From Antedon mediterranea (Eukaryota > Echinodermata > Crinoidea > Comatulida > Antedonidae): a stretch of 64,000 nucleotides of DNA. Position numbers and translations under genes: made by a program. Each line of letters begins with the position of its first letter. Positions within the stretch are counted from its first letter, which is position 1. Positions 348 to 62,105 of this stretch are shown one piece after another. The stretch spans positions 24,782,288-24,846,287 of the forward strand of contig NC_092676.1 in assembly GCF_964355755.1 (NCBI RefSeq), given 5' to 3'. Below the pieces are notes generated by a model, which saw only the letters and a program-made list of their open reading frames with translations, ran no database searches and was not told where the DNA came from.

Positions 348-2661
348 CTATCGAAATAAGGTAATAATACACTTCTATGAACACCGAATGAAAGTAAATA
401 TATTTATATTTAAAAGTTACAATGATACAAAATATAATAGTGCAGGTAACATATTAAAGACTGTTTGTGGTACACCACATACATTTAGTATGAACAGCAA
501 TGTGACACCACCTTAGAAACAATACTCTTCTATAGCTGGTTTCCATTGCGCCCATTGTGAAGCTTACTATTGTTTTAACTTTCACACCAGTCCCACCCAA
601 TTTCCTCTATATTCCCAGTTTTCTGAACTTTCTTCATTCTCACTCCCGGGGACGATCGAAGTATGTTGATCGAAACGTCGAGAAACTCATCAGTTCCTTT
701 CATTACTATACGTGGTGTACCGCAAACTTTACATCAACATTTTGATTTCACTATGCAAAACTTCAAACAATATATTAAAGACTATTAATAACATAAAGCT
801 ATACCTAAAACTGTAATAACGAAAGAACAGTTCTGTACGTTTGATGCACCATCTGAAGCAGTGTAGATGACTTGTGTTTGGCCTACAGTAAAAGCCTCTC
901 CTGGCACGTAATTGGTAGTAACTACTGGATGGTGTCCAGAATTGTCAATAATGTCTTGGAAGTCCCACTCTACGCGTGCCGAAGGCAATCTGTACTCTGT
1001 GTTGACGGTAATATCCATAGGACAGGTATAAAATACAGGTGCTTCAGTGTCTGATAAATAGCCAAGAAAATAGATAATAATGCTATGATAACTATTAAAT
1101 TGTTTATTCTATATACAAAGAAACATCGACCTCAATTCTTTTGAATTATGCGTATTGCTGTTTAATAAAAAATATTCTACTAATATACTTGATTCCCACT
1201 GGGCGCAGCGCAGGGACTAAGTGTTTTGACAAATCACAAACGATGGAGTATTCGAACTGCCGTTTGTCATTGGTCAACTCGCTTGCGTTACGTCTAGGTA
1301 CTTACGTTACGTCCTAATGGGACCAAAGCTTAAACAATACGATCAATTGTGATTACCTTCAACTAGTATATGAAACACACACGTTATTGTGTTCATAGAT
1401 GGATCAACAGCAGTAATGTTTCCAGTGTGGAAACCAATAGTAAACTCATCCCCTGACAAGTGCGAGTGATGCATTGTGGGTGCTTCTCCTGAATTATCCG
1501 TTGCATTAATGCTATCCCAGAAGACAGTCGCTGTTGGCATTCTGTGATCCGTAGAGACCGTAACATTGGCAGGGCAATTATGAATAACTGGAGATTGATC
1601 ATCTGAAAAATAGATACAGTTTGTTTATGAAGCGCTGAACGAGAAACTCGGAAAAACCTCATTTATAAGGAAAAATATTTATCTCTATCAACTAGCTCTA
1701 TCTATTAGCTATGTTGCTAATTCTTCTTACCTAAAACTGTTATATTGAATTGGCAATATGCAATGTTTCCCGCAGCATCTTCAGCGGTGAATAAAATAAG
1801 ATGAAATCCAATTTGGAGTTCCATTGACGTCACTTCCCGATCAGCAATCAATGGATTCTCACCACTGTTGTCAGTTGCGTTCAGATAGTCCCATGAAACG
1901 ATTGTTGTTGCAACATTAGGATCTGAAAAACCTGTAAGATCCTGAGGGCAATTTCTGAATACAGGGGCGGTAATATCTGGAAGATAAAGATCACATCATT
2001 TATTGTAGGCCTACAGTGATACCAATTTCGTTCAATTCATCCAAAGGTTTTACAAAGATTCGGCAAACTTTTTGAGATATCTTATCAATGGACAATCTTG
2101 ATGTATGTAGGCCTCGAAAGCTTTTTTAGTTTTTCATTTTAAGAATAAGTATTTGATTTTTTACCGATTATAGTGATAGTAAATTCACATGTATTAAAGT
2201 TTCCAGCTTCATCTGTTGAATTGTAGACAACGTCTGTATCTCCAATATAGAAATTGTCACCAGACTGAAAGTTTACAGTTACGACTGGAGCATCTCCAGA
2301 GTTGTCCGTGCTGCTAGGTGCTACCCACGTGACTTGTGTAAAATCGCTTGTGTCCAATGCAACATCCTCAATATCTGTTGGGCAGTTTGTAAACTCGGGA
2401 TGTTCTTCGTCTATTAATGGCAAAGAAAATTAGTAATTTATCATTGTAGACCATTTAATTGCATTTTTTAGTCGGCTACAGCTACGGTTGGTCGGTAAAC
2501 ACTAACTTGAGCACGCGACTTCAGACATGTATATGGCCTTGTTAAATATGAGTAGACTCATTCGAGAAGGCAGCACTCGAACACATTTCACGGCTGAAGA
2601 CTTGTTCAACGGAGTATATTTACTTATCATGTGACTCACAATCTTCCAATCAATTGACAAG

Positions 2662-2697
<36 letters not shown>

Positions 2698-5600
2698 TCA
2701 GTGTATTACACAGAGGCGCCTTACAAGATGGAACCATCTTAGCTTCAAGGCGCCTCAGATTAACAAATACAACATTTTAAAACAACTAACAGAAACATCA
2801 ATTAAATCTTCCAGAATTAACAAGAAATTGTTGTACATAATAAAATAATAAAGCATTTTCACAATTCGAAAGAAGATCGGAACCAAAAATAAAAATTTCA
2901 CTTAAAAATGTAAAATTAAATGTTAAAGAAAAAATGTAAAATTAAATGTTAAAGAAAAATCATAATAAGAACGTTTTTTTGTTTCAAACAAATTGGATTT
3001 CTGTAGCAATTTTTTAAACTCAACAAGAAATGAGGAATGTTTTATTTCATTATTTAACTCATTCCAATGTGTTATAATAGATGGGACAAAAGATAAACGA
3101 TATGATGTGGTCTTACAAAATGGAATTATTATATTTCGGATGTTACGCAAGTTATAAACTTCAATATTGTCAGAAAAATTAAATAAGGAGTAAAGATACA
3201 CTGGTGTTAACTTATGAATAATTTTAAAAAACAGTATTAGGTTAAGAAATTGTCTAAGTTTTTCCAATGATAACCAGCCTAATTGACAAGAATTTACCTA
3301 GGTGTGTTATGAATATTGTTACAAATTCTAAACTACAAATAAAATCGGTTGCTGTAATTATTGTCTTACCCTCAGTAATTACGTCAAATGCGCATGTGTT
3401 CTGATTACTTGACGAATCAGTAGCTTCGTAAGTAACTGTCTCGGAACCAATCGTAAACACGCTTCCAGAATTTCTAGTTTGACTTATGGTTGGTTCTAAG
3501 CCAGAGTTGTCTGTAACGACTGGTTCTTGCCAGTCGATGGTAGCCGATGGTAGGCCAGGTTCAGAAGGTGTGTGAATATCAGGGGGGCAATATGTAAACA
3601 CTGGTAGTTCATCATCTGCGAGAAAATAACAAAACAACAAATTGTTCACCTATATTCAAATAATAAATTAGTATAGACCTATTTATATGAATACTTAAGG
3701 TATTTAATTTAGGTATATTTAGGACGGACTTTACGTTGGTTTCCATTTCTTGGACGCAACGTACGGGCAACGCAAGTGATCAACCAACCACAAGGACAGT
3801 TTGGATGATCCATCGCGTCGTGATTGGTCAAAGTACTTGAGTTGCGCTGACACATTTGCTCTTAATTGTTCCTAAGGCTAGATCTACTTAAAACCCTATA
3901 AAACCAAACTTTCTCTTTGTATTATATTGTTTCGCATACCTATAACTGTGATTGTAAATTCACAGAGTGCTATGTTATTAGAACTGTCCACTGCACTGAT
4001 CGCTAGGTAACTTTCACCAATCTGGAACGTGTCCTGTGTGCGAGTATCATTAATGCTAGGGCTTTCCCCGCTGTTGTCAGTTGCTGCTACCAAATCCCAT
4101 GTCACGTCAGTCGTTGGTTCCCCAGTGGCTGTGTTCGTAGTGACGTCATCGGGACAAATTGAAAATACAGGAGGTGTGATATCTTGAAAGAAAAACAATA
4201 ATATTGATAGTTTGTGACGTCACTATTGTTTGATAAAGTATTCACAAATTATTTTGTATTCATATTAAAATAATTTGATTCAAAATATGTAACTCTGGTT
4301 GACAGAAAATAAACAAATCTATGAGGAGACCTAAGGAACAAATGACGATGTCTAATTATGATTTTACGTGTTGGGTTTGATGAGCAAAAGTGCTCAATAC
4401 AAAAGCAGTTCAAAATAGATATATTAATAATGTATCTATTTTTAAATATAGATACATAAGTAAATAAATACATTTCGATTTCAAATCATTTGTTAATGTA
4501 TCGAAACATACTGTTCTAAAAAATGAACGAGTTAATCAAGTTTATTTATTCCTACCGTTTATGTCCACGTCAAATGTGCATATGACACTAAGACCTGCAT
4601 CGTCCGTAGCTGTAATCTGGACGGTGGTAACACCAAGAGGAAACTGCTGCCCGTTAGAATGGCTTCCGGACGTTGTAAACTGATTTGAGTTATCGTCAAA
4701 CACAGGGTCTGCCCAATTGCCAATGCCCCATGAATTACTGTCTTCGAGTGATCCTGTTACAGTATTAGGGCAGGATACGATTTCTGGTGGCTCAGTATCT
4801 ACATGAGATACGGTAAATGCACTTATAATTTTAAAACATTTTTTCAGCATATGATGTAGGCCTATGCTAAAAGTACAGATAACGTCAATATAAATTAGGA
4901 GTTAATTTAGGCACTAATGTATTTGCCTGTTGCCGTCACAAACACGGTACTGCATAACACCAGGAACACAATAGGGCCTCCTTCAAATCGTGTGTATAAT
5001 ACCCAATAGAACAGGTCTAAATTATGTACATAATAGTGTATTACTATACAATATCACACGAAATGAATATTAATGTTAGAAGACGTGATATTGAAGGGTG
5101 TTTAGTGTCGCTAGACCGGGCGTTTATCTGGTATAATAGACGTACCTTCAATGTCAATATTAAATGAACAGTGGTCCGTGTTTCCCGATGGATCAGTGGC
5201 GTCACAATTCACGACTGTGTTCCCGATTTGTATTTGACTGCCTGAATTAGGTGTACAAGTTACTGTGCTGACGGCAATATTGTCCGTTGCTGCTGGAGTG
5301 GACCAGTTAATGACGGCATGATCTTCACCACTATCCGTTAACTGAGAAATATCACTGCCACACGTAATTGTCGGTGGTACAACATCTAATAAAAAGAGTA
5401 TTATTTTTGATGAAATGTGATTATGATTGAGAAATAACTACAAAATCATGTTTGAATTGACAGTATATTTAGAAATAAAGGCATTTAAAGCACCGAACAT
5501 GCAGTGCATTAATAGAATACAGGGCCTAAAAACTAATGTGTATGGTACATTCGAATCCTGATCGAAACGGTGAAGGATTTACGGTACAATGCATTAATGT

Positions 5601-20340: not shown

Positions 20341-20379
20341 TTGGAATACGCAAGTTACATTTGTTGAAATTTGAAATTA

Positions 20380-20945
20380 CCTGCCATCAATATGATGGAG
20401 CATGATTATAGATTTTCTAAAATGTGAACATGTCAGCTACATTTAGAAATTCCTGCCATCAATATGATGGATTATGATTATAGATTTAAAAAAGAATTTG
20501 AACACGTAAGCTACATTTGAAAATTACCTGCCATCAATATGATGGATTATGATTACAGATTTAAAAAAGAATTTGAACACGTCAGCTACATTTGGAAATT
20601 TGGAAATTACCTGCCATCAATATGATGGATTATGATTGTATAGTACCTGCCATCAATATGATGGATTATGATTGTATAGTACCTGCCATCAATATAATGG
20701 ATTATGATTACAGATTTAAAAAAGAATTTGAACACGTCAGCTACATTTGGAAATTTGGAAATTACCTGCCATCAATATGATGGATTATGATTGTATAGTA
20801 CCTGCCATCAATATGATGGATTATGATTGTATAGTACCTGCCATCAATATGATGGATTATGATTGTATAGTACCTGCCATCAATATAATGGATTATGATT
20901 GTATAGTACCTGCCATCAATATGATGGATTATGATTGTATAGGTT
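20380..20945. repeat. Minisatellite, 37-bp unit with longer variant
   Basis: The core ACCTGCCATCAATATGATGG followed by ATTATGATTGTATAGT repeats about 12 times. Some units carry an added segment of about 50 bp containing TTTAAAAAAGAATTTGAACACG and GCTACATTTGGAAATT, so the array mixes short (about 37 bp) and long (about 85 bp) units. The repeated reading frames on both strands are a by-product of the array. Confidence 0.9.
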
Positions 20946-39629: not shown

Positions 39630-40737
39630 TGGTAGTAATTTAAATTTTAACTTTATATATTAATAATAATGTAATAATGAACCGGCTTTTAAAATGTAAA
39701 GATATATATGCCTTGAATTTGGTATTGTACATTGGAACTTGTATTCAATTACTCATCATTTTGGAAAGTTAACATTTTATAAGAAATTTGTATTACAGAA
39801 TTAATTAATGTATTAATTTGTTTTCAGAACAATTTAGTGGAATTGTATAGTTTATATATTAACTATAGAGTTAGTAGAATTATAAACGTGCTAGGCCGGT
39901 TTAGTTTTTTATTCAAATATTTATTCATACCTTACAGTCCTCTGATAAATTCTCAAAATGTACAATGTCCCTTAAATTTGTCTTAGAGAAAAGAAAATAG
40001 TCAAACTGTACAATTTAAGCATTGTTCCTTAATTGTGATGAAATAACCAAGCTTGACACAAGTATAGACATTTCTGAATAGTTCAATCAATTTTAAAATA
40101 AACTAGTTTGTATTTTTGTTTAATGTTTTTATAAATAATGTAGTTAACATAATAAATTATGAATTTATAGATTATATAGAAATAGAAATTTATATAATAA
40201 TATCGTGTGTAAGTAGAATTAATTAATAAATAGAAAGTTAGTGATGTGTTTGGAATATAAACAAATGTTTTTGATATGCAAACAATTCTGAAGGAAATTC
40301 TGGGGACAAAATACATCTTTAATAATGTATTAGCAGATGAAAACAGTAGGGGTCAGTCATCTATAGTATATTGTAATTGTTTTGTTTCCTATCAGTATTA
40401 TGCAGTTCATCGTTAAAGGTTAAATCTTAAGTAAGAGTGATTTTATCTTGTATTTGCTTGTATTACTTTTTTTCCTATTGAAAATTAACAATATTATCTT
40501 TAAAATGGTGCTCGTCAATAAAACCTTCAGCCAAGTTGGTTAACTTTAAAAAACATGTTTAACAAAGTACATTTTCCAATTTGGAGTTTTTTATATTTTG
40601 TTGACTATAGTAAAAGAATTTACATGAAACATGACAATATTAGCACATACTCAATTGTTTAAAATCCATATAAGGATAATTTAAACAATTGTGAACATTT
40701 CAAGAAAAAAAATTGCCAAATTATAGTAACCATAAAT

Positions 40738-40870
40738 AATAAAATAATAAACAGTATTTATATAGCGCCTAATGGATCACTGACCCCTCTAGGTGCTTTA
40801 CATTAGACCTTAACTAATGGGAATAAACTATACCCCGCCGGACACCATTCCGGTATTTCTTAGTCGAGGT
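40738..40870. mobile_element. SINE tail fragment, family 2
   Basis: ATTTATATAGCGCCTAATGG, CTAGGTGCTTTACATTA and CCCGCCGGACACC resemble the body end of the SINE copies at 52328 and 53588. The tRNA-like head is missing. Confidence 0.5.
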
Positions 40871-40879
40871 TTCGGGGAT

Positions 40880-43800
40880 GGAGACAATCAATAATGTGGA
40901 AAAAAAATGGTTACTATAGCACAACAAACATGCGCAGAGTCGAATAGTGCGTTTTGCGCATGTTAATTGTGCTATAGTAACCAGTTTTGACATAAATAGT
41001 TACTATAGTTCGAAAAATGGCTGATTTCCGATCCTTTTATATTTTGACATAAATGGTTACTATTGCATAATAATGTTTATTATGCTATAGTAACCATTTA
41101 TGTCAATTGTGTTATAGTAACCAGTTTTGACATAAATGGTTACTATTGCATAATAAACATGCGCAGAGACGAATAATGGGTTCTGCGCATGTCAATTGTG
41201 CTATAGTAACCAGTTTTGACATAAATGGTTACTATAGCATAATAAACATGCGCAGAGACGAATAATGGGTTCTGCGCATGTCAATTGTGCTATAGTAACC
41301 AGTTTTATTGAAAAATTTAAAGGTCGAAAATTTGCAATTTTTTTTAAAAAAATCCCTGTACTATATATAGTACAGGGAAATTTTCGAAAAATGGCCGATT
41401 TAAGACCCTTTTATATTTTGGCATAAATGGTTACTATTGTATAATAAACATGCGCAGAGACGAATAATGGGTTCTGCGCATGTCAATTGTGCTATAGTAA
41501 CCAGTTTTGACATAAATGTACTATAGCATAATAAACATGCGCAGAGGCGACTCATGGGTTCTGCGCATGTTAATTGTGCTATAGTAACCAGTTTTATCGA
41601 AAAATAAAAAGATCGAAAATTGGCCATTTTAAAAAAAAAATCCTTGTACTATAGTACAGGGAAATTTTCGAAAAATAGCCGATTTTCGACTATTTTATTT
41701 TTTGACATAAATGGTGACCATAACACAATAAACATGCGCAGAAGCGAATAATGGGTTCTGCGCATGTCAATTGTGCTATAGTAACCAGTTTTATCGAAAA
41801 ATAAAAAGGTCGAAAAATTGCGATTTTTTTTTAAAAAATCCCTGTACTATAGTACAGGGAAATTTTCGACAAATGGGCGATTTTCAACCCTCTTATTTTT
41901 TGACATAAATGGTTACTATTGCATAATAAACATGCGCAGAGACGAATAATGGGCTCTGCGAATGTCAATTGTGCTATAGTAACCAGTTTTGACATAAATG
42001 GTTACTATAGCATAATAAACATGCGCAGAGGCGAATAATGGGTTCTGCGCATGTCAATTGCGCTATATTAACCAGTTTTGACATAAATGGTTACTATAGC
42101 ATAATAAACATGCGCAGAGTCGAATAGTGGGTTCTGCGCATGTCAATTGTGCTATAGTAACCAGTTTTATCGAAAAATAAAAAGGTAGAAAATTTGCCAT
42201 TTTTTTGGAAAAAATCCCTTTACTATATTTAGGAAATTTTAGAAAAATGGCCGATTTTCAACCCTCTTATTTTTTGACATAAATGGTTACTATTGCATAA
42301 TAAACATGCGCAGAGACGAATAATGGGCTCTGCGAATGTCAATTGTGCTATAGTAACCAGTTTTGACATAAATGGTTACTATAGCATAATAAACATGCGC
42401 AGAGGCGAATAATGGGTTCTGCGCATGTCAATTGTGCTATAGTAACCAGTTTTATCGAAAAATAAAAAGGTAGAAAATTTGCCATTTTTTTGGAAAAAAT
42501 CCCTTTACTATAGTACAGGGAAATTTTCGAAAAATGGCCGATTTTCGACCCTTTTATATTTTGACAAATGGTTACTATTGCATAATAAACATGCGCAGAG
42601 ACGAATAATGGGTTCTGCGCATGTCAATTGTGCTATAGTAACCAGTTTTATTATGCTATAGTAACCATGTATGTCAAAAGTGGTTACTTTTGACATAAAT
42701 GGTTACTATAGCACAATAAACATGCGCAGAGGCGAATAATGGGTTCTGCGCATGTCAATTGTGGTATAGTAACCAGTTTTATCGAAAAATAAAAAGGTCG
42801 AAAATTTGCAATTTTTTGGAAAAAATCCCTGTACTATAGTACAGGAAAATGTTCAAAAAATGGCCGATTTTCGACCCTTTTATTTTTTGGCATAAATGGT
42901 TACTATTGCATAATAAACATGCGCAGAGGCGAATAATAAGTTCTGCGCATGCCAATTGCGCGATATTAACCAGTTTTGACATAAATGGTTACTATAGCAT
43001 AATAAACATGCGCAGAGGCGAATAATGGGTTCTGCGCATGTCAATTGTGGTATAGTAACCAGTTTTATCGAAAAATAAAAAGGTCGAAAATTTGCAATTT
43101 TTTGGAAAAAATCCCTGTACTATAGTACAGGAAAATGTTCAAAAAATGGCCGATTTTCGACCCTTTTATTTGTTGGCATAAATGGTTACTATTGCATAAT
43201 AAACATGCGCAGAGGCGAATAATAAGTTCTGCGCATGCCAATTGCGCGATATTAACCAGTTTTGACATAAATGGTTACTATAGCATAATAAACATGCGCA
43301 GAGGCGAATAATGGGTTCTGCGCATGTCAATTGTGGTATAGTAACCAGTTTTATCGAAAAATAAAAAGGTCGAAAATTTGCAATTTTTTTGAAAAAATCC
43401 CTGTACTATAGTACAGGGAAATTTTCGAAAAATGGCCGATTTAAGACCCTTTTATATTTTGGCATAAATGGTTACTATTGTATAATAAACATGCGCAGAG
43501 ACGAATAATGGGTTCTGCGCATGTCAATTGTGCTATAGTAACCAGTTTTATCGAAAAATAAAAAGGTCGAAAATTTGCAATTTTAAAAAAAAAAATCCCT
43601 GTACTATAGTACAGGGAAATTTTCGACAAATGGGCGATTTTCAACCCTCTTATTTTTTGACATAAATGGTTACTATTGCATAATAAACATGCGCAGAGAC
43701 GAATAATGGGCTCTGCGAATGTCAATTGTGCTATAGTAACCAGTTTTGACATAAATGGTTACTATAGCATAATAAACATGCGCAGAGGCGAATAATGGGT

Positions 43801-44330
43801 TCTGCGCATGTCAATTGCGCTATATTAACCAGTTTTGACATAAATGGTTACTATAGCATAATAAACATGCGCAGAGTCGAATAGTGGGTTCTGCGCATGT
43901 CAATTGTGCTATAGTAACCAGTTTTATCGAAAAATAAAAAGGTAGAAAATTTGCCATTTTTTTGGAAAAAATCCCTTTACTATATTTAGGAAATTTTCGA
44001 AAAATTGCCGATTTTCAACCCTCTTATTTTTTGACATAAATGGTTACTATTGCATAATAAACATGCGCAGAGACGAATAATGGGTTCTGCGCATGTCAAT
44101 TGTGCTATAGTAACCAGTTTTGACATAAATGGTTACTATAGCATAATAAATATGCGCAGAGGCGAATACTGGGTTCTGCAAATGTCAATTGTGCTATAGT
44201 AACCAGTTTTATCGAAAAATAAAAAGGTCGAAAATTTGCCCTCTTATTTTTTGACATAAATGGTTACTATTGCATAATAAACATGCGCAGAGACGAATAA
44301 TGGGTTCTGCGCATGTCAATTGATGTTTTG
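40880..44330. repeat. 3.4-kb array of palindromic tandem repeats
   Basis: Built from two kinds of hairpin. The first, about 85-90 bp, runs TGGTTACTATAGCATAATAA, ACATGCGCAGAGACGAATAA, GGGTTCTGCGCATG, TCAATTGTGCTATAGTAACC, so its two halves pair. The second, around TCCCTGTACTATAGTACAGG, is flanked by TTTTCGAAAAATGGCCGA. One to three of the first alternate with one of the second, giving periods of roughly 200, 285 and 370 bp. Blocks such as 42841-43060 and 43127-43350 are nearly identical, showing recent segment duplication. Many in-frame repeats appear on the minus strand, but no gene is supported. Confidence 0.9.
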
Positions 44331-45167
44331 CCCCAAAAATAAGTAGTTAACAGTCAAAATGTAATATTTTTTTACATGGATATACCCAGTGGGTTGTACA
44401 CTACACTACACTACACTTTTATGTTGGTTCGGTGGGCTTTGCTATGTTTTTTTGGAGGTTTGCGGGGTTTAGCAATACCTGATAATAGTAAACATTTTTG
44501 TCAATTATTTTTACAGGGATTTTTTTCTAAAAATGGCCAAGATACACACTTTTTAAAATACTAATTATTTAATAGTATGCAATAATATTACTATGGGCAT
44601 ATATTGCGTTATCATCATCTTATAGACGTATAGTAACCATTCATGTCAATTATTTTTGTTTTAATGGGATTATTTAACATTATCTATTCTATTGAGGTAA
44701 CATGCGCAGACTATATTATTTGATTAAGCAAATTATTATAATTAAAAATAATAAATAATAATTTAATAATATTATGATAGTCAAGTTCACATATATTTAG
44801 CCACCAACAAAAGAAAAACAGTCTGGAATTGCAATGCATTTTTTTGTAGTCAATTTATAAAAATATGACATTTTGAGACCTGCACTGTGCTAGTAGAGGT
44901 TTGTGTAGTCACAACAATGCGCTTTTATTTCATGAGAAAATAATTAGGCAATGATACATTATTATGTAAACAACATCTTTATTGAATAATCTCCAAACAC
45001 TAAAATGAAACAACAGGTGTAAACAATATACAAAAAAAAAAGCGTATTAGGTACACAGGAAAACTGAATGTTTAAAATGTCCCACCAAGACAGTCTGCGC
45101 ATGCTCAGAAATGCAATAAGAGCAGGTTGTTGTTGAATTATTGCAGTATACGAGTATTAAGCTTTGT

Positions 45168-45420
45168 TCCCACTAGGACACAACGCAAGTGGTTGGACCA
45201 ATCACAAGTGATGAATTATTCAAACTTGCGCTTGTTGCAGGTCAACAGGTTAAAATTGCACCTAAAGCTCTGTCTACACTATCAAACTTAATGTTAAAAA
45301 ACAAATGCGATGTGCCCATGGACATGTCATATTACTACCATATTTGGGCACATCACATTTTTTTTTAAACTAGTTTGATAGTGTAGACAGAGCTTAAATC
45401 CTTGCGTTGCTTCCCTAATT
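45168..45420. mobile_element. TTCCCACT-family MITE interrupted by another MITE
   Basis: Starts TTCCCACTAGGACACAACGC and ends with the inverted CCTTGCGTTGCTTCCC at about 45400. A complete CTACACTATC-family MITE (45266-45393) sits inside it, which dates the two insertions relative to one another. Confidence 0.6.
45266..45393. mobile_element. CTACACTATC-family MITE, nested
   Basis: Ends AGCTCTGTCTACACTATCAA and AGTTTGATAGTGTAGACAGAGC; TTAA follows on the right and CTAA precedes on the left. It is nested in the TTCCCACT-family element. Confidence 0.78.
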
Positions 45421-47363: not shown

Positions 47364-49475
47364 TTAAGATACATCTGCAAAATTCAACAATATCACAAAT
47401 TATAATAGTACAAAATAAAAAAAAATCATATTAACATCATACCAGCCCATTATTTTGAATTCAGTAATATTATGGATAATATTATATTTTCTTCCAATGT
47501 ATACTTACATGATGCTGTCGATTGGCCAAATTGTCTATGAATTTGGTCGTAAGTAAATCGAACAAATGCATCGTATTGTTCTAAAAATGAAAACATATTT
47601 AAAATATATTTGAATAAAACGATTTAGATTACTATAAATTTTTGAGACAAAATAAACAACTACTGTACTGTACAGTACTCTAACCCCATCTACACTATCG
47701 AACTAGTGTGATGTGCCTAAATATGGTAGTGATATACCCAAATATGGTAGTGATATACCCAAATATGGTACTGTATGACATCATCATGTCCATATATGGG
47801 CACATCACATTGTTTTGTCACATAAATTTTGATTAGTGTAGACAAAGCTTCATAATAATGTTAAGGTTTGCTTTAGGTTGACTTACCAGATATTTTTTCA
47901 TTGAGAATTTTCTCATATTCTTCTTTCATCTGGCAGTCACGCTCTTTCAAAATACGTTCACATATTATAAGCACTTGTTTTAGCGTAAATAGTGGCTGTT
48001 CTTTTCGGCCGGCGGCAGCATCGGCGTTACCGGTATTCATACTTGTTGACGGGCCAGCCGACGACGACGGAGAGTCGGGATAGTTTGATTGCACAAGTTC
48101 TTGTGATGATGAGGCCATTGTTTCAGATACATTACAATTGGAAAAACTATCTTCTGCCGCAAGCTTCTTTTTTCTTTGTATTTTTCTCCATTCAATAGTT
48201 ATACTATTTGCTAATTGTTCTAAAATATAAAGGGTAATTTTTTTTTTACAATTTCTATATACATATTTTTTATTTAATTAATTTTTTTTCAAATTACTTT
48301 TAATTTTAAACAGGATTTATATATTCTGGTAATCAGATTACCACCAGTAAATAAATATCAGAAAGTTAAAATTACTGGTACACAGTATTATTGTATACAG
48401 TATCTAAAAAAATGCAGTTCTTTTTTAATTTTTAAACTGTACAGTGTACTGTGTTTTTTGTTTTTTTTTAGTTTACCATGCAAACATATTTAATAATAAT
48501 ATTTCTATTATTAAACACTGGGCTATGCAGAAATAAAAAAACTCAAGCCATTGTTAACAAATTATTTCTTTTTAAGCAATAAAGGATACTGTGCTTAATA
48601 TGATGGTTTTACAATTTTTTTTGTGAACAAAAAAAAACAGGATATAGCAACTGGTATTGGATTATCATCCCAGGAAATGACATCAAAATCCAAAGATTTT
48701 CAGTTTAAATGTTTTCAATTGGATGGAGTAATTTAATGATAAAATTACAATACTGTATACCAAGATTTAACATCTCGGTTATAACTATTTCACCCCTAGT
48801 AACTATAGGTAGACCCCATTTATGGCTTTTAAAGTACCATTTTCGATATTTTTTTTTATTTGCCCAAACATCCCCAATATTTTTTTCTCAGAAATTTTAC
48901 ACCATAAAAAAACGTAATATTACTTATCATTCATTCACAACTGATCTCACTTTGGGCTTGGCAATTCAAACACTTCTTTTGTTGAGCAACACCTTTATAT
49001 ACAAATCATCTGACCTAATTTGACCTCTGCCTTTATTTGCATTTGAAACAGCTGATCAATAAAATGGTTCCAAAGCAGAGGCATACATACAGAATTCTTG
49101 AAAAGAACAATTCCATAAACCAGAGGACTATGAATAAAGGTTTAGTAGGCCTATATTGGGATATAGGCTAGGCCTAGGTCGTGTGACTGATGGGTCAATT
49201 ATTAATATAAATATTTAACACAGCAACAGCAACCAAAATAGACCAGAACCAAAAGGGCAGAAAGGTCACCTTCAATTCAATAAATTTATGAGAAACACCC
49301 TACCTCTATTCAAGAATTTCGATGATACATTTTCAAACGGTGACGGTTTCTTGCACTGTTGTTGTGGTGGGGTAGATGGTTTTAAAACTGGCATACATCT
49401 CCTTCGCTTTGGGGAAGCAGAAGGGCTGTGTAGTGGATCAAAATCTAGTGTCCGTTTCAAAGTAGCGCAAGCCAT
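47364..49475 (-). CDS. AKIRIN: Akirin, complete, four coding exons
   Basis: Akirins are small nuclear proteins that help NF-kB-type factors and chromatin remodellers activate immune and developmental genes; vertebrate AKIRIN2 also brings proteasomes into the nucleus. Coding exons in order: 49304-49475, 47887-48219, 47509-47580, 47364-47374. All borders are GT/AG and phases match, giving 195 aa, the usual family length. The start [15 protein letters not shown] and the basic nuclear signal SPKRRRC are diagnostic. The second exon gives [20 protein letters not shown] and [12 protein letters not shown]. The third gives [20 protein letters not shown]. The final 11 nt supply the conserved C-terminal Tyr-Val-Ser and a TAA stop, the motif that in AKIRIN2 docks on the proteasome. 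The middle region is Ser-rich and variable, as expected. The ortholog number cannot be assigned for an invertebrate. Confidence 0.94.
47685..47848. mobile_element. CTACACTATC-family MITE with internal duplication
   Basis: Starts CCATCTACACTATCGAACTA and ends GATTAGTGTAGACAAAGC. The segment CCAAATATGGTAGTGATATA occurs twice and once more in variant form. It lies in the akirin intron between exons 2 and 3. Confidence 0.72.
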
Positions 49476-51043
49476 TGTTTTGAAATAACACCGAAAAGAA
49501 CGGACAGTTAAACGTTCCCTCTACCACTACAACCGAGGTTTATCCAAATAATTTATCCTTTAGCTCCACCTTAGATATATTATCTAAACACTGATTCACA
49601 CAAACTAGTATTTTATATCGTCTAAGGGCTTGATTTACAGGATTCTTCTCAGTCCTTCTATTTATCTTCGATGTCAACAGACCCACCGACAATTCAAAAT
49701 GGCTGTGTTTCTCAATCAAGCAGCCTCGATTTCGATCTCAGATTCTATCAGCGTTCCATTAACTCCTGGGGGCGCTCTATCTATAAATTATTTTACGGTG
49801 GCCTTGACTGACCTTACTCGAACTGAAAAATTAAATACTATTTAAATTTTGTTTGTATATATTGTCGTGAACAAAATTGATATTTCAACCAGAAAAATGG
49901 ATATAATTGTCTTGAGAAAACTGATATTTTTAATCCTTGATTATACTGGGAAAGTATTACTTCTTTCTAATTCTGATGGGAACTTACTGGCCACCGTAAC
50001 TAAATCAACTTTATACAGTAAAGTAATATCAGTATTTCTGAAATACCTTAGTAATATAATAATTATAGTACAGTTCTAAAAAAATGTACAATATTTCTTT
50101 GTATTTTATTATTTTATTTTCATATATATTCTTTAAATTTTAAGAAAATAATTCTTATTCATAAATGTACTACACTAACATTATAATTTAAGTCTAACTT
50201 ACAAATTTGAATTATCAAATCTAATAAAATATATGCAAAATATAAAACTGGAATGTCTTGATAAAGCACTTATTTATGTCAGAATGTCAACATGATTAAA
50301 AACATAGTAGGCCCTATCTTAGATTTATTTTTACAGCAATAGCCTCTTGATATGGGTAGACTTTCAGACGTACATTACTGCTAAATAAATACAAGTATTC
50401 CTGAGTAAGTTTCAATACAACAATTAATATAATACAGTTACTATTATTTTAAGTAATCTCTGTCAAACTATGTTCATCTACCTTTATTCTTTTTAAGTAA
50501 AAAAAATGTCTTTCACTGCATAAGTACCAACGCTAATGCACTTTCGCAATTTTAAAACATTCACCCGTTGCGCAGCGGTGATGGCGAGTGACCGTGGAAG
50601 TCTTATGCCCAGTTTTAGGTGCGAAGTGCAGTAGCGTCCAAAGACTAGCATATCGCAGTAATTTAAACTGTTGCAAAATGACTAACTAATTTACCAATAT
50701 GATAAAAAATAATTAAGAAAATGTAATTTCAAATTCGATAAGCTTTTCTATATTGGAATATTTTTATACAAATATAAAACTAGTTATAGATATTGCACCT
50801 TCTTACTAGAATAAATGATAAATGAAAAATCAGTGTCCTATAACTAAACTGAATTTAACATGAATTAGTTGAAATGAAGTATAAACACAACTGGATTATA
50901 TACCATGTTTATGTATGTATTTCATATGTATATAAATCATACTGTCAAATTATAGAAAAAGTGCTCATATTCGGAACATGATCTTATAATCGCGTCGAGC
51001 ATAGCTCATCAGCGAAAGTTATGAATTTTAGTTGTATGAAAAA

Positions 51044-61975: not shown

Positions 61976-62105
61976 ACGCGCGCGTTGAAACGATGATAAT
62001 ATGGTACATATTTTGTACGCGCGCGTTAAAACGATGATAATATGGTACATATTTTGTACGCGCGCGTTAAAAAAGGCCAGTAATAATGGTACGCTTTTTG
62101 TACGC
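61976..62105. repeat. 41-bp tandem repeat, about three units
   Basis: Units contain GCGCGCGTT, AAACGATGATAATATGG and TACATATTTTGTAC, at exactly 41-bp spacing (61981, 62022, 62063). The third unit is altered. CG-rich ends sit within AT-rich DNA. Confidence 0.85.

What the first reader, a model, noticed from the sequence alone, without database searches (positions are those of the whole stretch)
40880..44330. 3.4-kb composite array of two alternating palindromes
Nearly the whole array can fold: each ACATGCGCAGA...TCTGCGCATGT hairpin of about 90 bp has arms continuing into GGTTACTATAGC/GCTATAGTAACC, separated by a second palindrome TGTACTATAGTACA. The unit number varies from one to three between spacers and whole blocks are recently duplicated. 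Such dense hairpins just 1.5 kb after vinculin and 3 kb before akirin may act as a fragile site, a replication barrier, a structured non-coding RNA, or a boundary between converging genes. I know of no named repeat with this structure.
Basis: partly seen in the sequence, partly recalled or inferred. Interest (0 to 1): 0.72.

Follow-up and report, generated by a model that had tools for sequence, protein, structure and literature searches.

The report
Palindromic satellite DNA scattered genome-wide
The 3.4-kb hairpin-rich block is one of many copies of a scattered satellite repeat in this animal genome, whose unit seems to have arisen when an older repeat folded back and copied half of itself in mirror image; nothing found here points to a job at the two neighbouring genes.

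Summary
The array is real (about 40905-44321): 23 aligned "H" units (89 bp, a 76-nt foldback) and 10 full "S" units (107-113 bp, a long imperfect palindrome), one to three H between S, with block duplications. It is not unique. In the same 354-Mb genome GGTTACTATAGC occurs 3152+3201 times (reversed control 9+19); the first 100 listed sites all fall in four clusters. Twenty-six stretches read (chosen because they hold it, window included) have the same H/S units, usually H-H-S, mostly in one orientation. Older monomers of about 165-200 bp (types B and C) lie at or in 21 of the 26; four C/B-type loci read hold no exact young 12-mer. The young unit matches the left half of C followed by its own inverted copy, pointing to fold-back template switching, then amplification and spread. 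Pairing shows no compensation: 396 distinct H units have 6 double changes against 6.5 by shuffling, which argues against a structured RNA. No shared transposon ends were found. Young arrays lie nearer chromosome ends than old ones (post hoc, incomplete lists). Best reading: a dispersed satellite, new variant of a known kind; a local function at vinculin/akirin is unlikely.

The parts
40905..44321 (+). whole H/S array (first H arm to the truncated last H)
41125..41302 (+). two H units (89 bp each) before the first full S
41303..41415 (.). first full S palindrome (113 bp; centre expanded to CTATATATAG)
41042..41124 (+). rearranged H: hairpin without the ACATGCGCAGA arms, joined to a second right end
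40985..41041 (+). chimera: H left arm joined to the S right half at the shared ACTATAG
42076..42164 (+). example H unit; 76-nt foldback, -27.8 kcal/mol as DNA
43349..43456 (.). example S unit with perfect 22-bp core TCCCTGTACTATAGTACAGGGA
41519..42483 (+). block duplicated at 43276-44240 (95.5% identical)
42688..43223 (+). block duplicated at 42974-43509 (97.8% identical)
44207..44248 (+). S unit with its centre deleted
44249..44321 (+). last H unit, cut short
44460..44640 (+). degenerate old monomer of type B at the right edge (S-like piece about 44512-44553, B-specific part from about 44536)
44692..44710 (+). start of an old monomer of type C (TTGAGGTAACATGCGCAGA), one of 63 exact copies in the genome
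39132..39317 (+). last vinculin-matching ORF (Pfam PF01044, profile 797-852 of 852)
47873..48277 (-). akirin-matching ORF, C-terminal part
49272..49520 (-). akirin-matching ORF, N-terminal part

Best explanation
This is one locus of a dispersed satellite DNA family. An older satellite (monomers of about 165-200 bp carrying a small hairpin and a quasi-palindrome) gave rise to a new unit when a strand folded back at the quasi-palindrome and copied its own left half, turning the monomer into two alternating near-perfect palindromes (H and S). Some S palindromes were then lost by deletion between short TTTT repeats, giving H-H-S units. These amplified within loci by unequal exchange or slippage and spread between chromosomes, often at or beside places that already held the old satellite. 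Shown: the genome-wide family, its H-H-S order, homogenisation within loci, old monomers at the edges, old loci without exact young motifs, the mirror-image match of the right half, and no compensatory change. Inferred: fold-back template switching as the event, its direction, the route between loci (circular DNA or gene conversion at homologous old arrays), and the absence of a local function.
For: 3152+3201 exact sites against 9+19 for the reversed control; the first 100 listed all lie in four clusters, none isolated. Profiles of the window's units find H/S arrays in 26 of 26 stretches (chosen for them) and nothing in 58 kb of the window away from the array. H runs between S: two in 170 of 263. 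H divergence within a locus at the same position 4.1-4.4%, first against second position 6.9%, between loci 7.2-7.9%; nearest neighbour in the same locus for 439 of 554, ties allowed; no clear chromosome effect (p 0.148). Old-type monomers on a flank at 18 of 26, inside the stretch at three more (L009, L011, L028), none in the 58-kb control. Old monomers differ by 27.8% between loci, S by 8.4%. Young right outer arm fits the reverse complement of the old left arm better than the old right arm in 19 of 19 old monomers from 11 stretches (0.749 against 0.632; shuffled 0.609). Against a C consensus from 12 monomers of three C-type loci: 86% against 64%. Four of four C/B-type loci hold no exact young 12-mer. 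No covariation in 396 units.
Against: Direction (old to young) rests on divergence, edge position and the right arm shared by B and C; no outgroup species was available. The 26 stretches were picked by first position on C1 (5; L012 and L013 adjoin), by similarity to S (20), plus the window: not a random sample. The four C/B-type loci were picked, for several C words each, from 43 places; at least six other C places lie close to young arrays (C1:36.55, C2:13.09, C7:17.95, C7:24.83, C8:2.27, C8:10.36). There the H profile still finds two partial matches in L034 and L036, C and H being homologous. An earlier, unequal-length form of the mirror test gave 14 of 16, not all. The loop of H varies more than the stems (0.106 against 0.044), which some would read as stem constraint. 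The H-H junction could be the earlier state, with S inserted later. The B set behind the 27.8% may include some young-like copies. A transposon that carried the first arrays and lost its ends is not excluded.
Confidence: 0.75

Rival explanations
1. H is a miniature inverted-repeat transposon (MITE) or the array is the repeat domain of a foldback transposon, and a transposase moves it.
For: 76-nt foldback with 31-nt inverted arms; published cases of satellites born from MITEs and from the foldback Tetris.
Against: None of the first 100 listed sites is isolated, though the list covers only the first 4.4 Mb of C1. Arrays are mostly single-orientation (620 H against 19; 19 of 26 stretches with none inverted), not inverted pairs round a middle domain, within stretches of at most 10 kb (14 kb for the window). 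Similarity among 24 upstream and 24 downstream flanks stops at differing distances, and where I read the shared part it consists of B/C or H/S pieces. Target-site duplications were not searched for.
Confidence: 0.13
2. The arrays are the tandem-repeat core of a Helitron/Helentron-type element, as described in oysters.
For: Scattered short arrays of units of about 165-200 bp resemble the oyster pattern.
Against: No shared 5' or 3' end outside the arrays in the flanks compared, up to 2 kb each.
Confidence: 0.05
3. The hairpins act as a structured RNA or small-RNA precursor.
For: The four units folded do far better than shuffles. The loop varies more than the stems.
Against: No covariation: 6 double changes against 6.5 by shuffle in 11,276 cells; 61 of 500 shuffles reach the window's own score; 0 of 31 predicted S pairs compensated. 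Stems (0.044) are no more conserved than the unpaired 5' spacer (0.045). No Rfam match in the array at gathering threshold.
Confidence: 0.03
4. The arrays serve a chromosome function such as dispersed centromere units or meiotic pairing sites, for which dyad symmetry is favoured.
For: At least 50 loci on nine contigs by my hand count; dense dyad symmetry; homogenised within loci; young loci near chromosome ends (KS p 1.8e-5 for 38 loci, post hoc). Repeat-based holocentromeres in plants use dispersed satellite arrays.
Against: About 0.24% of the genome by rough estimate; arrays from under 1 kb to about 13.5 kb; no chromatin data; an end bias is unlike the even spread described for Tyba holocentromeres.
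Confidence: 0.06

Closest known systems
Scattered satellite DNAs of the oyster Crassostrea gigas (PMC8268682, passages seen)
   Same: Short satellite arrays scattered across the whole genome; monomer sizes in a range linked to nucleosome spacing.
   Different: Short oyster arrays are described inside Helitron/Helentron elements; no such ends were found here. An alternating H/S palindrome unit made by mirror-copying was not in the passages seen.
Tetris / TIR-220 satellite of Drosophila virilis (PMC4079207, abstract and section 10 read)
   Same: Tandem units of about 220 bp linked to foldback DNA and forming kb-size arrays.
   Different: Tetris has long inverted terminal repeats round a middle domain and 8-10-bp target-site duplications; here arrays are mostly single-orientation, and duplications were not searched for.
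MITE-derived satellites (Xstir, miDNA4 of Xenopus; described in review PMC12628747, passages seen)
   Same: Stem-loop elements tied to tandem repeats; microhomology deletions invoked.
   Different: No intact MITE copy was recognised here and no solo insertion among the first 100 sites listed.
Palindrome elongation and quasi-palindrome correction by template switching in rad27-deletion yeast (PMC5677150, passages seen)
   Same: Same proposed event: the nascent strand folds back and copies itself, the palindrome grows, amplification may follow.
   Different: Observed there in yeast mutants; here inferred as the origin of a satellite unit.
Tribolium madens macro-dyad satellites (PMC13081366, abstract and outline seen)
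   Same: Satellite arrays with dyad symmetry able to form hairpins or cruciforms.
   Different: There tens of kilobases in multi-megabase (peri)centromeric regions; here the palindromes lie inside each unit and the arrays are short and scattered.

Membership tests
Satellite DNA (dispersed arrays) | tandem head-to-tail units | tested here: met
   26 of 26 stretches, chosen for them; 170 of 263 H runs between S are two
Satellite DNA (dispersed arrays) | concerted evolution: copies more alike within a locus than between loci | tested here: met
   H 4.1-4.4% within (same position) against 7.2-7.4% between; S 6.1% against 8.4%
Satellite DNA (dispersed arrays) | many loci on several chromosomes | tested here: met
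   at least 50 loci on nine contigs by hand count
MITE | terminal inverted repeats | tested here: met
   76-nt foldback with 31-nt arms
MITE | dispersed solo copies | tested here: not met
   0 of the first 100 listed exact sites isolated (the list covers only the first 4.4 Mb of C1, 100 of 6353 sites)
MITE | target-site duplication | not tested
   edges of some arrays were read but no search was run and no empty site was available
Foldback transposon | two inverted arms of tandem repeats round a middle domain | tested here: not met
   620 H in one orientation against 19; 19 of 26 stretches with none inverted; a partner further off than the stretch would be missed
Helitron/Helentron | conserved ends flanking the repeat core | tested here: not met
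   24 upstream and 24 downstream flanks of up to 2 kb: similarity stops at variable distances
Structured RNA | compensatory base changes | tested here: not met
   6 against 6.5 expected
Repeat-based holocentromere | CENP-A/CENH3 on the arrays | not testable with these tools
   no chromatin data

The most novel reading that the evidence does not exclude
The mirror-copied palindromic unit took over older scattered satellite loci because dyad symmetry serves a chromosome function, such as dispersed kinetochore units or meiotic pairing sites concentrated towards chromosome ends; the array beside vinculin would be one of a hundred or more such sites.
Probability: 0.06. Interest if true: 0.8.

Novelty: new variant of a known kind. 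Interest (0 to 1): 0.45.

Why it matters
Satellite units are often palindromic, but the step that makes them so is seldom visible. Here the older, less symmetric monomers survive at the edges of young arrays and in arrays of their own, so the step from quasi-palindrome to a fully alternating palindrome unit can be read, together with its spread over many loci and an apparent shift towards chromosome ends. It makes a concrete test case for fold-back template switching as a source of satellites, and for whether palindromic units out-compete their ancestors.

Tried and rejected
Structured RNA: rejected on covariation. Continuing arm-to-arm correction in H: not seen. MITE, foldback and Helentron membership: see Membership tests. 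Protein-coding carrier: ORFs of 180 codons or more in the 26 stretches include simple repeats, pieces read through the array itself, unexamined ORFs and reverse transcriptases (Pfam run on two of them); in L015 the 1007-codon reverse-transcriptase frame lies between two array halves and is read as an insertion into the array. Spread mainly to neighbours on the same chromosome: no clear effect (p 0.148). Pattern scan of viral contigs: 0 exact matches. Literature: seven searches, of which only the word search bears on the sequence itself. Species not identified. A genome-wide map of all arrays was not possible: lists stop at 100 places or 40 scored candidates, and most whole-genome requests did not complete. 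A C search by profile was contaminated by young units because they share sequence and was replaced by anchored searches. A first mirror test with unequal lengths (14 of 16) was replaced; monomers lacking a recognisable left or right part were dropped there without being counted.

Full report
Observation. The window holds, at about 40905-44321, an array of two alternating palindromic units. H (89 bp) aligns over 23 copies at 96% mean column identity (one copy is 87 bp, and the last row begins in flanking sequence); its core is a 76-nt foldback with 31-nt arms TGGTTACTATAGCATAATAAACATGCGCAGA and a 14-nt loop. S (107-113 bp) aligns over 10 copies at 90% and is a long imperfect palindrome round CCCTGTACTATAGTACAGGG. 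Inverted-repeat cover is 22.8% against at most 1.3% in 100 shuffles. Rearranged pieces mark the left end (40985-41124), and an S with its centre deleted lies at 44207-44248. Two large block duplications are 95.5% (965 bp) and 97.8% (536 bp) identical.

Surroundings. Vinculin-matching ORFs lie on the + strand up to 39317 and akirin-matching ORFs on the - strand from 47873, so the array is between convergent genes. Rfam at gathering threshold finds only two tRNAs in the window, far from the array.

A genome-wide family. The window is C7:24782288-24846287 of a 354-Mb assembly in 18 contigs; GGTTACTATAGC occurs 3152 times forward and 3201 reverse, against 9 and 19 for the reversed control. The first 100 listed sites (all within C1:0.43-4.42 Mb) form four clusters of 32, 30, 12 and 26 sites, the last in at least two blocks; none is isolated. 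A search with S gave its best places on C1, C2, C3, C4, C5, C7 and C11 (40 of 1733 candidates scored). Together with a rarer H variant (72+65 sites, control 0+0, first 100 listed) I count by hand at least 50 separate loci on nine contigs: 26, 20 more, four. With 686 exact 12-mers for 639 H hits in the 26 stretches, 6353 sites imply roughly 5,900 H units and, at two H per S, about 0.84 Mb or 0.24% of the genome; this is rough and from a chosen sample.

Order and homogenisation. The 26 stretches are the window plus L009-L033; five were taken from the start of C1 (L012 and L013 adjoin), 20 for similarity to S. Between consecutive S units the number of H is two in 170 of 263, one in 55, three in 25 and more in 13. 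Orientation within a stretch is nearly constant (620 against 19 H; 19 of 26 with none inverted). H units at the same place in the H-H-S unit differ by 4.1-4.4% within a locus, first against second by 6.9%, and between loci by 7.2-7.9%; the nearest neighbour lies in the same locus for 439 of 554, ties allowed; 7 of 396 distinct sequences occur in more than one locus. The first H after S carries T at one stem column in 61% (n=268) against 7% of second H (n=201), over all loci, so the H-H-S register seems to predate part of the spread. Loci on the same chromosome are not clearly closer (7.44% against 7.72%, permutation p 0.148).

Older relatives. Beside the young arrays lie diverged monomers of about 165-200 bp. 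Type C starts TTGAGGTAACATGCGCAGA and has a small hairpin, then ATAGTAACCAGTTATGTC..., a quasi-palindrome round the same CTATAG centre, and CGACTTTTTAAAATATG. Type B shares the middle but continues into GCAATAATATTGCTATATATGCGCATATATTGCG. Old-type monomers lie on a flank at 18 of 26 stretches (mostly within a few hundred bases, at L027 and L033 further off) and inside the scanned span at three more, L009, L011 and L028; the control, 58 kb of the window, has none. Of the other five, the arrays of L025 and L026 largely fill the fetched stretch. In the window a B remnant is near 44460-44640 and a C start at 44692. C-type words occur 63 times exactly in the genome (30+33, control 0+0), at 43 places by my grouping. 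Four of these, picked for holding several copies, were fetched (L034-L037) and hold no exact young 12-mer; L034 is a C array of about 2.6 kb. At least six other C places lie close to young arrays. B monomers differ by 27.8% between loci, S units by 8.4% (the B set of 76 may contain some young-like copies).

How the young unit arose. The left half of the young unit (H loop to S centre) matches the left half of C, and the right half matches the reverse complement of that same left half, not the right half of C: 83%, 86% and 64%, with shuffled maxima 67%, 67% and 60% (C consensus from 12 monomers of L034-L036). A consensus composed by eye gave 89%, 92% and 66%. C is itself a weaker palindrome (63%, shuffled maximum 58%), and the two young halves are 84% alike. 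In 19 of 19 individual old monomers from 11 stretches the outer right arm of the young unit fits the reverse complement of the old left arm better than the old right arm (means 0.749 and 0.632; shuffled 0.609; some margins are small); an earlier form of the test with unequal lengths gave 14 of 16. The simplest account is a fold-back copy at the existing quasi-palindrome. Template switching that corrects and lengthens palindromes, sometimes with amplification, is documented in rad27-deletion yeast (PMC5677150, passages). H-H junctions are 15 nt in 265 cases (AGTTTTGACATAAAT in 121), which reads as the left end of S joined to its right end between TTTT runs; in L010 a different 48-nt junction occurs 14 times, an independent loss of the S centre. 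The opposite order, S inserted into an H-H junction, is not excluded.

Function. If the hairpin were used as RNA or a maintained cruciform, compensatory changes would be expected. In 396 distinct H units, 29 pairs and 11,276 cells there are 6 double changes, against 6.5 by shuffling; pairing is 94.8% observed and expected. Stems vary no less than the 5' spacer (0.044 and 0.045), although the loop varies more (0.106). The C and G columns of ACATGCGCAGA vary more than its A and T columns, as ordinary CpG decay would give. So symmetry looks like a product of origin plus homogenisation, not of selection on pairing. That the motif resembles an NRF1 half site is recalled, not tested.

Position. Young loci lie nearer chromosome ends than expected: median 0.23 of a half-chromosome for 38 loci (KS p 1.8e-5), old C-type loci 0.53 for 36 of 43 places (p 0.36), difference p 0.0015. 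This was noticed after seeing the lists, without correction; the 12 loci alone give p 0.018. C6, C8 and C9 were left out for want of lengths (nine of the young loci, seven old places), the lists are incomplete, and some young and old places coincide. A further pattern meant as an independent check did not complete.

Known kinds. Satellites derived from mobile elements are reviewed in PMC12628747 (passages) and scattered short arrays are described in oyster (PMC8268682, passages). Foldback, Helentron and RNA features tested were not met within the limits stated; for MITE one feature was met, one not, one not tested (Membership tests). I file the feature as a dispersed satellite, a new variant because of the alternating palindromes and their readable mirror-copy origin. 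Whether the family already has a name could not be checked: no repeat library was on hand and the species is not known to me.

Noticed in passing
20369-20942: Another tandem array (periods 36, 75/83 and 155 bp) whose unit holds the small palindrome CCATCAATATGATGG; no H or S profile match there.
   Followed up: no
45230-45420: A common dispersed repeat: pieces of it match in many of the other fetched stretches, often in both orientations, like a small inverted-repeat element (printout cut).
   Followed up: partly
40735-40880: A stretch that looks SINE-like (TATATAGCGCC...AGGTGCTTTACA) sits at the left edge of the array; the likeness is recalled and its comparison was not seen in the cut printout.
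   Followed up: no
L015:3002-6022: A 1007-codon open frame with endonuclease and reverse transcriptase domains lies between two halves of an H/S array, probably a LINE inserted into the array.
   Followed up: partly
L029 (oriented) about 2370-3700: A separate array of a 45-46-bp unit (TTGAGGTAACATGCACATACCACATTATGTGATTATGCACATTATA), apparently the C-type hairpin alone amplified.
   Followed up: no
G000 C1:11125660-11126010 and C1:11154858-11155208: C-type words recur with identical spacing 29 kb apart, suggesting a segmental duplication.
   Followed up: no
38 young and 36 old loci: Young arrays lie towards chromosome ends while old C-type places do not; noticed post hoc.
   Followed up: partly
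61976-62072: 41-bp tandem repeat beginning ACGCGCGCGTTAAAACG, 98% matches.
   Followed up: no
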